In this document: positions 55,443-59,155 of the stretch, piece after piece
Layout of the letters: each line of letters starts with the position of its first letter
Position numbering within the stretch: the stretch's first letter is position 1
Assembly (NCBI RefSeq): GCF_013402815.2
Contig: NZ_CP058601.1
Coordinates: forward strand, 3,162,001 to 3,226,000
Source of the DNA: Natrinema halophilum
GTDB taxonomy: Archaea; Halobacteriota; Halobacteria; Halobacteriales; Natrialbaceae
Length of the DNA stretch: 64,000 nt
Direction of reading: 5' to 3'
Program-made: the position numbers and the translations under genes
The notes under the pieces: generated by a model
The model's input: only the letters and a program-made list of their open reading frames with translations
The model's database searches: none
What the model was told of the DNA's origin: nothing

Positions 55443-55604
55443 ATGAGAGCCGACTTCGATATGGAGCGTGGCGGGCCACTTCACGAAGCCGTGAAGCAAT
55501 ACGCCCGTGACCACGGGATACGCCACTCACGCGCGTACCCCGAACTCCTCCGCAAAGCACTCGAATCCGAAGGCTACGATGTCAACGACTCCGACAGCGA
55601 ATAA
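55443..55604 (+). CDS. Small protein upstream of tnpB (53 residues)
   Basis: ATG 55443 opens a 53-codon frame: MRADFDMERGGPLHEAVKQY, then a helix HSRAYPELLRKALESEGYD, then an acidic end. The helix-turn-helix-like arrangement and the position, overlapping the start of tnpB by 26 bases in another frame, suggest a conserved partner rather than noise. I do not know a function; a small DNA-binding regulator of the transposon is one possibility. Confidence 0.55.
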   Translation: MRADFDMERGGPLHEAVKQYARDHGIRHSRAYPELLRKALESEGYDVNDSDSE

Positions 55605-56733
55605 AACACTGGAGGCCACGCTCGCACCACCCACGCGGTGCAAAGAGCAACGCCTCCAGCAAACGCTGTCCGAATACCGTCACGCACTCCACGACGCCTT
55701 CGAGCAAGACTGTACGACGATGAGTGCCACGAACGACGTGGTGACGCCGTACAACCTGCCGTACCAGGCGAAAGACGCCCTCAAATCCTACGTCCCGAAA
55801 CTCCACGACACGTACAACGCACAGGAGTTAGACGACGAACACCCGCTCCGGTTCGTCAATCGAGCCGGGAAGTTCGACCGTGACTCCTCGCGCGAGTACG
55901 AAATCTGTTGGAACGTTCCGCAACCCGGTCGTGGAACCAACTTCTGGATACCCCTCCGATTGAACCCCGAACAAGAGGAACTGTGGGACGACCTGCTCGA
56001 TGAGGGGTCGAGTACGAAGGTGGGCGAACTTCGCTTGCAGAAACATCGGAAGACGTGGACACTCCACGTCACCGTCGAATACGAGGTCGAAGAGACGACC
56101 GAGCTACCCGAGGAACCAACTCGGGTTGGGTTCGATATTGGTGAGTCGATGCTGGTCACGGGCTGTGCCCTCCAGCACGCCACTCCCACCAAGCCGTTGC
56201 TCATCAACGGGAAAGAAGCCAAGCGACTCCGCAAGGAGATGTTCACGACGCTCAAGCGCCTGCAAGAACGAGACGCCTCGGAGTGGCGGGTCGAAGAACG
56301 CTTATCGTACTACCAGAACCGGCTCACGGACATCATCGAGAAGGCGTCTCGGAAGTCCGTCGAATACGCCAAACAGTTCGAGAACCCCGTCGTCGTGATG
56401 GAGGACTTGGCATACATCCGTGAGTCGCTGGACTACGGGAAGTATATGAACCGACGGCTGCACTCGTGGGCGTTCGCTCGGTTGCAGGGACGTATCGAGG
56501 ACAAGGCACGAGACGCGGGAATTCCGGTCCGATACGTTCACCCGCAGTACACCTCGCAGACGTGCCACTCGTGCAAGCATATTGGGAATCGGCTCCAGCA
56601 AGCCGAGTTCAAGTGCAAGAACCCTGAGTGCCACGTATCGACGTTTCAGGCGGACATCAACGCGAGTGCGGAACATTGCACGTCGCGTAGACCCGTGGGG
56701 AGAGAGCCTGCCGTGGAAACAGGCAGGCGATGA
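55579..56733 (+). CDS. tnpB: TnpB RNA-guided endonuclease, frameshifted near the 3' end
   Basis: 384 residues from ATG 55579. The RuvC-like nuclease is complete: motif I FDIGES (about residue 192), motif II VVMEDLAYIRE (about 275), zinc ribbon CHSCKHIG...CKNPEC, motif III FQADINASA (about 360). After ADINASA the reading frame is wrong: an extra G at 56670-56671 replaces NIARRVDPWGESLPWK by an unrelated Arg-rich tail. In the other frame coding continues to 56959. TnpB uses a guide RNA made from its own 3' end (omegaRNA) to cut DNA. The nuclease core is intact, so activity is possible but uncertain. Confidence 0.85.
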   Translation: MSTTPTANKTLEATLAPPTRCKEQRLQQTLSEYRHALHDAFEQDCTTMSATNDVVTPYNLPYQAKDALKSYVPKLHDTYNAQELDDEHPLRFVNRAGKFDRDSSREYEICWNVPQPGRGTNFWIPLRLNPEQEELWDDLLDEGSSTKVGELRLQKHRKTWTLHVTVEYEVEETTELPEEPTRVGFDIGESMLVTGCALQHATPTKPLLINGKEAKRLRKEMFTTLKRLQERDASEWRVEERLSYYQNRLTDIIEKASRKSVEYAKQFENPVVVMEDLAYIRESLDYGKYMNRRLHSWAFARLQGRIEDKARDAGIPVRYVHPQYTSQTCHSCKHIGNRLQQAEFKCKNPECHVSTFQADINASAEHCTSRRPVGREPAVETGRR

Positions 56734-57013
56734 CTTCTTGGAAGACCAAGTCTTCCAATGGTCAGGAAATCTTCGATTTCCTTCGACGCCACAGGACGGG
56801 AGCCGTAGTGACACGGCCACGACTCAGTGTGAGCAGAGCGAGACACCCTCGCAGATGACACTCACATCGTCTCAAGAGTCGGAACCCACTGCCAGCGTTC
56901 ACGAGACTGAAAGTCTCGTGCAGCCCGCCAGAACCTTCGGTTCTGGAGACGACGACTGACTGGCATTCCTCTCGTAGGGGAAGCCCCGCCGTTTACGGCG
57001 GGGAGGATGTCAC
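56734..57013 (+). ncRNA. Probable omegaRNA/sotRNA region at the tnpB 3' end
   Basis: In IS1341-type elements of haloarchaea an overlapping sense transcript covers the tnpB 3' end and right end, and TnpB proteins use such RNA as guide. Here the region is rich in hairpins: CACGAGACTGAAAGTCTCGTG (56901-56921), CCAGAACCTTCGGTTCTGG (56928-56946) and the terminal hairpin 56984-57003. A guide segment would start just beyond 57013. No expression evidence is available. Confidence 0.5.
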
Positions 57014-57340
57014 ATATGCCGCAATCGTTGCATCGACGAAGGAGAGTGCCGGGTACCGACGGAAAGCGCCTGTGCAGCGTTGAAGTCAACTCGAGGCGCG
57101 TGGACGATCTCGAAGTGTGTCTCTTCGATAAGCCGGTCGAGTATCGCGTTCGCTGCATCAGAGCCGAGCTTTTCTCGAGTCAGATTCAGCGTTTCGGCGA
57201 GGACGTAATTCGTCACTATCGCCGCCGGGAGTTCGCCGTGGTCGACGCCGCGGACGATATCCCGTGCCGTCTCGTGATACTCATCACGGGCACTGGCAGT
57301 GGCGAAGAGAACGTTCGTATCCAGGAGGATCGACAGTCAC
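57014..57340 (-). pseudogene. VapC-family toxin, N-terminal piece with frameshifts
   Basis: The minus strand reads LLDTNVLFATASARDEYHET, then VTNYVLAETLNLTREKLG, and after a frame change YPALSFVDATIAAY. The PIN-domain acidic residues (DTN, ETLN, DATIAAY) are visible. There are at least two lesions besides the insertion: no proper start codon in the DTN frame after the overlapping vapB stop, and one missing base at a CTTTCC run near 57085. Confidence 0.75.
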
Positions 57341-57583
57341 TCGTCACCGAAGTCGCCTTCGATCTCGACTGCGTTCGTGTGTCCCGCGTCGACCGGCTCG
57401 AAGTCATCGAACACGCCTTCGCGTTGGTGTGCGATCTCGACGGCCAACGTCTCGTCCTCGGTCACGTTCCAGCGGAGCTTATCGCCGGCGTCGATACCGA
57501 GGTGGCGACGAATCTCCGCAGGGATCGTTACCATCCCGCGGTCGCTCACTTTTGGTCTCTTCGGGAGTCTCTTCGGCGACCAT
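57337..57583 (-). pseudogene. VapB (AbrB/SpoVT-type) antitoxin, frameshifted
   Basis: About 80 residues with an AbrB-like domain KVSDRGMVTIPAEIRRHLGI, GDKLRWNVTEDETLAVEI and an acidic end. ATG 57583 reads VAEETPEE in one frame, and the body lies in another; one extra A in the AAAA run (near 57552) explains it. The body could still be made from another start, but no good one is seen. Antitoxin of the neighbouring vapC; both are disabled. Confidence 0.65.
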
Positions 57584-57639
57584 ACGCATCGATACAGGTG
57601 TTGTCGCCTTACATGTTTCTCCACATGTGTCTCTGGAAT

Positions 57640-57959: not shown

Positions 57960-58214
57960 TCACCGCTGATCCCCATCTAAATCATCTTCTCGAGAGAGCA
58001 TGATCACTGTCATGAACAGTGAGACCGTCGTAATGGCGAGCAATACTCGAGTGTATACTATCGGTGAAATGCCGATCGATCTGAGAGTACTGTTCACTGT
58101 TCCAAGCGTTGATTCTGCAACCATCGAAACGAAAAGGATAAAGAACGCTATCATTCCAATATCTGTCCACGTGCGCCAGTGGATACCTATGACCATCATC
58201 AATAGTTGTGTCAC
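57960..58214 (-). CDS. Small two-span membrane protein next to a halocin-like gene
   Basis: An 84-residue protein with two membrane segments (WTDIGMIAFFILFVSMVAES, about residues 16-35, and VYTRVLLAITTVSLFMTVIM, about 53-72) and an acidic end REDDLDGDQR. AT-rich composition unlike most neighbours. It is divergent from the Cys-rich precursor gene, with 153 bp between. By position it may provide immunity or export for that peptide; no motif proves it. ATG 58214 is the natural start. Confidence 0.5.
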   Translation of the reverse strand: MTQLLMMVIGIHWRTWTDIGMIAFFILFVSMVAESTLGTVNSTLRSIGISPIVYTRVLLAITTVSLFMTVIMLSREDDLDGDQR

Positions 58215-58298
58215 GCACCAATATAAAAATGACTTTCACAACATAAAATTTTGATGAATATATATGTTCTTATAGGCGGCTGTTTTACCAAATAACGG

Positions 58299-58345
58299 AT
58301 TGTGTGATTATATTTACACAATTTTCAGTAGATACATTTAATAGA
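58299..58345 (+). promoter_or_regulatory. Palindrome and TATA box of the halocin-like gene
   Basis: ATTGTGT-N10-ACACAAT (58299-58322) followed by a TATA-like CATTTAATAG (58335-58344), 24-33 bp upstream of ATG 58368. This spacing predicts a leaderless or nearly leaderless mRNA and a regulator site just upstream of BRE/TATA. Confidence 0.55.
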
Positions 58346-58367
58346 TTGGGTCTTGTAACCAATTACA

Positions 58368-59057
58368 ATGTCTAAAGAACACAACCGATCGCAACATGGT
58401 GCAGTACGGAATTCGGGTAGACGACGTGACATACTCCGTGGAATAGCAACAGGAGCAATCTCGTCAATTGGTCTGAGCGGATCCGTGTCCGCAACCGAAT
58501 CCCGAAACCCAAAACACTCTGACACGACCGTCGAGTCTGTGGATTTCAGTATCGCATCTGCGAAGGATACCCTCGAAGAGATTACTTCCTCGAAATTGTT
58601 CGAGAGCTTAGTTACTGACGGATATTTTACCGAATCGTCAATTGAAGCAATACCATTTGAAGAATTAATTGACGAATCTCTGCCGGGGGGTATCGAACGA
58701 TTGCGGGTTAACGGCGATATCGAGCAGTATAACTACCATATCCCGCTTGATGGGAATAGACTAGAAATAATGCTTCCTCTTTCTGATTTTATACCAAACG
58801 CCTATCTTCACAAAAAGGACGGTGCGGAAATCGTATATGCACCTGATAATTCATATCAGGGAGAGGAACTTCGTGCATCAACTGCAAGTACAGAGGCAAG
58901 TTCGAACGAATGCGGCCCACCGTACATGCGATTTTGCACGAGTTGTATAGCCTGCTGTGGCCTCCGTGGCTGGAGCCGAAATGAAAAGAAGGTCGAATGT
59001 TCTAACTGCGTTATCGGTAATTGTAAGTGGGTTAAAACGGGGTGTTGTAAACAATAA
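58368..59057 (+). CDS. Halocin-like Tat-exported Cys-rich peptide precursor
   Basis: A 229-residue preproprotein. The leader is a Tat signal: GRRRDILRGIATG (residues 17-29), a hydrophobic stretch AISSIGLSG and a likely cleavage site after SVSA (about residue 42). Residues about 45-175 are an acidic propeptide without Cys. The last 50 residues (180-229) hold ten Cys at 182, 190, 193, 196, 197, 211, 214, 219, 226 and 227. This mirrors halocin C8, where a Tat-exported precursor has a C-terminal 76-residue core with ten Cys and an N-terminal immunity part. The sequence is not the same as HalC8. The gene is AT-rich and lies between copies of an mgtE end, hinting at transfer. Antimicrobial activity is inferred. 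Confidence 0.6.
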   Translation: MSKEHNRSQHGAVRNSGRRRDILRGIATGAISSIGLSGSVSATESRNPKHSDTTVESVDFSIASAKDTLEEITSSKLFESLVTDGYFTESSIEAIPFEELIDESLPGGIERLRVNGDIEQYNYHIPLDGNRLEIMLPLSDFIPNAYLHKKDGAEIVYAPDNSYQGEELRASTASTEASSNECGPPYMRFCTSCIACCGLRGWSRNEKKVECSNCVIGNCKWVKTGCCKQ

Positions 59058-59155
59058 AAACTAACATCTTCGATCGTATAACGGAATGCATTTTCACAAT
59101 TTGGGTAGTCTATATAAGACTTAATTAGAAGAATCGTTTCGATATCGAAAACGAT

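What the first reader, a model, noticed from the sequence alone, without database searches (positions are those of the whole stretch)
58368..59057. Candidate new halocin: Tat leader plus a 50-residue ten-cysteine core
Seen: all ten Cys of the 229-residue product lie in the last 50 residues, with two adjacent pairs (CC at 196-197 and 226-227), a Tat signal at the N-terminus and a Cys-free acidic propeptide. Known: halocin C8 is made as a Tat-exported precursor whose C-terminal ten-Cys core is the toxin and whose N-terminal part is the immunity protein HalI. Inference: this is a distinct member of that class. The core differs in sequence and Cys spacing from HalC8 as I remember it.
Basis: partly seen in the sequence, partly recalled or inferred. 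Interest (0 to 1): 0.85.

Follow-up and report, generated by a model that had tools for sequence, protein, structure and literature searches.

The report
Haloarchaeal peptide-toxin cassette with immunity gene
A salt-loving archaeon carries a two-gene cassette that most likely makes a secreted, disulfide-rich peptide for attacking competing microbes together with a small membrane protein that protects the producer; it belongs to a family distinct from the one well-studied haloarchaeal peptide toxin, halocin C8.

Summary
A 229-residue ORF (58368-59057 +) has a Tat-like leader, a Cys-free acidic middle and ten Cys in its last 48 residues. Homologues in other haloarchaeal families keep all ten Cys and nearly the same spacing; one same-genus copy is truncated. 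A wider family of about 15 clear members in 391 Halobacteria genomes shares the architecture with 8-10 Cys.

It is not a halocin C8 family member: no TIGR04449 match, no profile match outside the Tat region, different Cys spacing, polar rather than hydrophobic core.

Context nevertheless argues for a bacteriocin-like system. A small two-TM protein (57960-58199 -) accompanies four of five close homologues. In 29 genomes of the genus both genes are present (2) or both absent (27) at one site. Halorussus relatives keep the small protein without the precursor, as orphan immunity genes would. All ten sister-subfamily loci have an ABC-2 transporter nearby. Four family loci have a 'PEYTG' membrane protein that also sits beside some halocin C8-family genes.

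Best reading: a new microhalocin-like family with a separate candidate immunity gene. Secretion, cleavage, disulfides, killing and immunity are inferred. A 2019 mBio survey of archaeal toxins, which I could not read, may already list relatives.

The parts
58368..59057 (+). precursor gene, 229 aa: Tat-like leader, acidic pro-domain, 10-Cys core
   Evidence: homologues
58368..58496 (+). Tat-like signal peptide (residues 1-43, RRRDILRG...SVSA); end of signal approximate
   Evidence: Tat-region alignment with HalC8-family precursors
58497..58910 (+). Cys-free acidic pro-domain (residues 44-181), strongly conserved in close homologues (VNGxxEQ...RLEIxLPLSD...YLH), ending in a variable Ser/Thr/Ala/Glu-rich linker
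58911..59054 (+). C-terminal core, residues 182-229, C-7-2-2-0-13-2-4-6-0, net charge +6
57960..58199 (-). small two-TM protein with motif HWRTWxxIGxxAF ('WRTW protein', 79 aa from ATG at 58199; ORF is open to a GTG at 58214): candidate immunity protein
58337..58342 (+). TATA-like TTTAAT about 30 nt before the precursor ATG, as expected for a leaderless haloarchaeal transcript
   Evidence: sequence; by eye only
58222..58227 (-). TATA-like TTTATA about 28 nt before the ATG of the small TM protein (favours the ATG at 58199 over the GTG)
   Evidence: sequence; by eye only

Best explanation
The two divergent genes at 57960-59057 form a toxin-immunity cassette of a new microhalocin-like family. The 229-aa product is exported by Tat as a precursor; its acidic pro-domain keeps the core soluble or inactive; the roughly 48-residue ten-Cys core folds with disulfides outside the cell and is released by cleavage in the variable linker, probably by an extracellular halolysin-type protease; the released cationic peptide inhibits related haloarchaea, and the small membrane protein encoded back to back protects the producer. 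Shown here: gene, architecture, Cys conservation, homologue family, linked presence of the two genes, bacteriocin-like gene context in relatives. Inferred: export, disulfides, cleavage, toxicity, immunity.
For: (1) Ten Cys with the same order and near-identical spacing in the three full-length close homologues from three other haloarchaeal families. (2) Wider family with Tat leader, Cys-free pro-domain and terminal 8-10 Cys core, 15 clear members in 391 Halobacteria genomes. (3) WRTW protein is found in 12 of 391 genomes, and its four strongest hits are the ones beside four of the five close homologues; co-occurrence p about 2.5e-6, not corrected for phylogeny. (4) In 29 genomes of the genus a conserved PhoU/TrkA-like gene and MgtE-like gene are 114-720 bp apart in 27; the other two carry both cassette genes between them. 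(5) Halorussus relatives keep WRTW at the thermosome locus without the precursor. (6) All ten sister-subfamily loci have an ABC-2 ATPase and permease within about 3.2 kb, against 3 ATPase hits in 491 kb of background. (7) The PEYTG protein lies 1-103 bp from four family genes, beside HalC8-family genes in L099 and Halobacterium sp. GN101 and beside other Tat/Cys-rich precursors; L108 has family gene, PEYTG, ABC-2 and HalC8-family gene in one cluster. (8) The homologue in G077 has two stop codons before its last CC pair while its WRTW gene stays open. (9) The cassette is AT-rich (GC 0.43 against 0.60) and more diverged than its flank.
Against: No expression, secretion, processing or activity data. 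No significant similarity to any known toxin or antimicrobial peptide. The pro-domain is about as conserved as the core, so the whole protein could be the functional unit. PEYTG is in 92% of Halobacteria genomes, so it is not specific to toxin loci. Core charge is not conserved across the family. No homologue in the plasmid collection. The structure prediction was uninformative (pLDDT 35).
Confidence: 0.66

Rival explanations
1. A secreted, never cleaved two-domain protein whose Cys-rich tail binds metal (Zn, Fe or Cu) or stabilises a surface structure; the neighbouring membrane proteins and ABC transporters handle the metal or assemble the protein.
For: CxxC pairs in the core; pro-domain as conserved as core; Tat can export metal-loaded folded proteins (general knowledge).
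Against: Cys number and spacing differ between subfamilies (10, 10, 8) with CC or CxC ends, which suits disulfides better than one metal site; no Pfam, NCBIfam or PDB match to a metal domain; presence/absence cassette behaviour and orphan WRTW genes are unusual for metal handling.
Confidence: 0.14
2. A secreted signalling (quorum or pheromone-like) peptide precursor, with the small membrane protein or ABC transporter as sensor or importer.
For: Same precursor logic; linked membrane proteins.
Against: WRTW has no obvious soluble signalling domain (74-85 aa); no regulator gene directly beside the window gene; ABC genes are of the ABC-2 exporter type, related to drug and lantibiotic protection pumps, not substrate-binding importers.
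Confidence: 0.1
3. A true halocin C8 family member that has diverged beyond detection, with the pro-domain acting as HalI-type immunity protein.
For: Same layout: Tat, long pro-part, terminal 10-Cys core; shares the PEYTG partner with some HalC8-family loci.
Against: No TIGR04449 match; profiles align over the Tat region only; Cys spacing C-7-2-2-0-13-2-4-6-0 against C-2-7-3-7-13-7-8-8-5 and GRAVY -0.19 against +0.89.
Confidence: 0.08

Closest known systems
Halocin C8 (HalC8/ProC8, NCBIfam TIGR04449 halocin_C8_dom)
   Same: Tat-exported precursor, long N-terminal part, ten-Cys C-terminal core; some loci share the PEYTG partner gene
   Different: No sequence or profile similarity outside the Tat region; different Cys spacing; 48 polar cationic residues against about 76 hydrophobic ones; a separate small membrane protein as immunity candidate rather than self-immunity by the N-terminal part
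HalH4 and HFX_0892, haloarchaeal precursors activated by the protease HlyR4 (PMC12893001)
   Same: Secreted precursor activated by extracellular proteolysis is the model proposed here; HalH4 and HalC8 release active C-terminal fragments
   Different: HFX_0892 releases an N-terminal fragment; no homology between these proteins and the window protein was tested
Bacterial bacteriocin loci with small membrane immunity proteins or ABC-type self-protection (lantibiotic LanFEG, drug-resistance DrrAB type)
   Same: Precursor next to a small TM protein or an ABC-2 ATPase plus permease; ATPase resembles lantibiotic-protection and DrrA families
   Different: Export here is by a Tat leader, not by a dedicated peptidase transporter; no modification enzymes seen; analogy only

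Membership tests
Halocin C8 family (TIGR04449) | Match to the halocin_C8_dom profile above its cut-off | tested here: not met
   No NCBIfam match for P0001 at E<=10; two other genes of the same genome score above cut-off
Halocin C8 family (TIGR04449) | Ten Cys with spacing near C-2-7-3-7-13-7-8-8-5 in a hydrophobic core | tested here: not met
   C-7-2-2-0-13-2-4-6-0, GRAVY -0.19
Halocin C8 family (TIGR04449) | Tat-exported precursor with long N-terminal part and C-terminal core | tested here: met
   Sequence layout and Tat-region profile match; export itself not testable here
Halocin C8 family (TIGR04449) | N-terminal part acts as immunity protein (HalI) | not testable with these tools
   Profiles of the pro-parts do not align, but function cannot be tested
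Microhalocin (secreted haloarchaeal antimicrobial peptide under 10 kDa) | Released peptide under 10 kDa with antagonistic activity | not testable with these tools
   Predicted core of 48 residues; activity unknown
Bacteriocin-type locus | Precursor genetically linked to a candidate immunity or self-protection gene | tested here: met
   WRTW linkage, ABC-2 linkage in sister subfamilies; that these genes protect is not shown
New family defined here (group A) | Ten-Cys pattern C-(5-7)-2-(1-2)-0-(12-13)-2-4-6-0 at the extreme C-terminus after a conserved pro-domain | tested here: met
   Window, L039, L040, L041; L004/L038 truncated

The most novel reading that the evidence does not exclude
A previously undescribed family of archaeal peptide toxins in which immunity is given by a separate small membrane protein (WRTW) or an ABC-2 pump in place of the precursor's own N-terminal part, with the PEYTG membrane protein as a shared accessory (maturation, disulfide or immunity factor) of several unrelated Tat-exported Cys-rich toxin families including halocin C8.
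Probability: 0.4. Interest if true: 0.75.

Novelty: new variant of a known kind. Interest (0 to 1): 0.6.

Why it matters
Halocin C8 is described as the best-characterised halocin at the molecular level, and most halocins have not been fully sequenced (PMC11509114). If correct, this gives a new sequence-defined peptide family with an obvious immunity-gene candidate that can be tested by single-gene deletion, and partner genes (WRTW, PEYTG, ABC-2) that can be used to find further archaeal peptide toxins. It would also show that separate immunity genes, usual in bacteria, exist for archaeal peptide toxins beside the halocin C8 self-immunity model.

Tried and rejected
Family searches with Pfam, NCBIfam, PADLOC and PDB sequences gave nothing above chance. 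Two scans of genome contigs found no relative and the plasmid collection held none of the precursors. The first full-length profile search was flooded by matches to Tat signals only, so it was repeated without the leader. PEYTG was first considered as a toxin-specific partner; it occurs in 358 of 391 genomes, so only its close adjacency counts. My first gene caller missed the ABC genes beside L044; the six-frame search corrected this. Makarova et al. 2019 (mBio, 10.1128/mBio.00715-19) is not held.

Full report
Observation. The ORF at 58368-59057 (+) is as described: 229 aa, all ten Cys between residues 182 and 227, CC at 196-197 and 226-227, a Tat-like leader and an acidic Cys-free middle. The chance of ten Cys all falling in the last 50 residues is about 1e-7.

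Homologues. Direct search in the family found an orthologue in another species of the genus (G077, 58% identity) and distant relatives. Profile searches over 391 Halobacteria genomes gave 15 clear members plus a few weak ones. Close homologues (group A: window, L004/L038, L039, L040, L041) come from four haloarchaeal families; the three full-length ones outside the window's family keep all ten Cys with nearly the same spacing and also a conserved pro-domain. Group B (L042, L043, L046, L050) has ten Cys with spacing about C-3-2-1-4-10-2-4-5-1; group C (L044, L048, L049) has eight; L052 has ten with another spacing. More distant Tat/Cys-rich proteins lie in other loci.

The G077 copy has two adjacent in-frame stop codons just before its last CC pair, so its product lacks that pair, while its neighbouring WRTW gene is open.

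Not halocin C8. The genome itself has two TIGR04449 genes elsewhere (L002, L003), but the window protein has no match. BLAST and profile comparison give nothing beyond the Tat leader. Another species of the genus carries a core that I recognise from memory as halocin C8 itself (L059), which suggests the genus is Natrinema; its spacing and hydropathy differ clearly from the window core.

Linked small membrane protein. A two-TM protein of 74-85 aa with motif WRTW lies divergently next to the window gene, to the G077 orthologue and to the L041 gene, and 0.9 kb from the gene in L040. It occurs in 12 of 391 genomes, and the four best hits are these four loci. In the genus, 27 of 29 genomes have neither gene between two conserved neighbours, and two have both. 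In Halorussus the WRTW gene is present at the thermosome locus where the precursor is absent, in flanks that are about 89% identical to the locus with the precursor. Halorussus is identified from matching plasmid lengths and positions and is an inference. This pattern (joint presence, orphan partner, partner open when the precursor is truncated) is what a toxin with a dedicated immunity protein would give.

Other partners. All ten loci of the sister subfamilies have an ABC-2 ATPase and permease within about 3.2 kb, several directly adjacent; the ATPase resembles DrrA and lantibiotic-protection pumps. Three of these loci (L042, L043, L045) and another two (L046, L047) closely resemble one another, so the independent events are fewer than ten. 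A membrane protein with motif PEYTGxNRCxPCT lies within 1-103 bp of four family genes. It is common (358 of 391 genomes, mostly 1-6 copies), but the same kind of adjacency is seen with HalC8-family genes (L099; Halobacterium sp. GN101, L199) and with other Tat/Cys-rich precursors (L145, L159, and L200 in Haloferax larsenii NCIM 5678). Locus L108 holds a group C gene, PEYTG, three small TM proteins, ABC-2 genes and a HalC8-family gene within about 7.5 kb.

Evolution. The cassette region 57960-59060 has GC 0.43 in a window of 0.60. Against the G077 copy, dN is 0.28 with saturated dS for the precursor and 0.37 with dS about 3 for WRTW, whereas the flanking MgtE-like gene has dN 0.10 and dS 0.68. 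Faster change or separate acquisition of the cassette are both possible.

Mechanism and limits. The likeliest reading is a Tat-exported toxin precursor, processed outside the cell to a disulfide-rich peptide, with the WRTW protein as immunity factor. HalC8 and HalH4 are reported to release active C-terminal fragments, HalH4 by the protease HlyR4 (PMC12893001), and the HalC8 precursor is reported to be Tat-exported and split into HalI and HalC8 (PMC11509114). None of these steps is shown for the window protein. A 2019 survey of archaeal antimicrobial peptides is cited in the literature but not held here; from memory it predicted further archaeocin-like families, so parts of this family may already be listed there.

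Noticed in passing
G000:C1 2906366-2906578 (L002) and 2732424-2732621 (L003): The same genome carries two other genes with a halocin C8-like domain above the TIGR04449 cut-off, outside the window.
   Followed up: partly
L105 5345-6355 (G000:C1 about 2.767 Mb): Own-genome copy of the PEYTG membrane protein with no Tat/Cys-rich precursor beside it; PEYTG is near-universal in Halobacteria and its function is unknown.
   Followed up: partly
L200 2983-4798 (Haloferax larsenii NCIM 5678 plasmid): A Tat protein with a hydrophobic Cys-rich tail (10 Cys) stands divergently to a PEYTG gene in a strain listed as producer of halocin HA3 (PMC11509114 table); a candidate halocin precursor, untested.
   Followed up: partly
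L199 2527-4916 (Halobacterium sp. GN101 megaplasmid 2): HalC8-like gene divergent from a PEYTG gene that looks frame-broken, in the strain listed as producer of halocin R1.
   Followed up: partly
L181, L182, L183, L184, L186, L055: Further Tat-leader proteins with Cys-rich tails of other patterns, three of them in tandem in L055: a larger pool of possible haloarchaeal Cys-rich secreted peptides.
   Followed up: no
window 55507-56733 and 57010-57624: TnpB-like ORF of IS200/IS605 type and remains of an AbrB/PIN (VapBC-like) pair lie between the PhoU/TrkA-like gene and the cassette; similar VapBC remains sit at the site in L208 and L209, which lack the cassette.
   Followed up: partly
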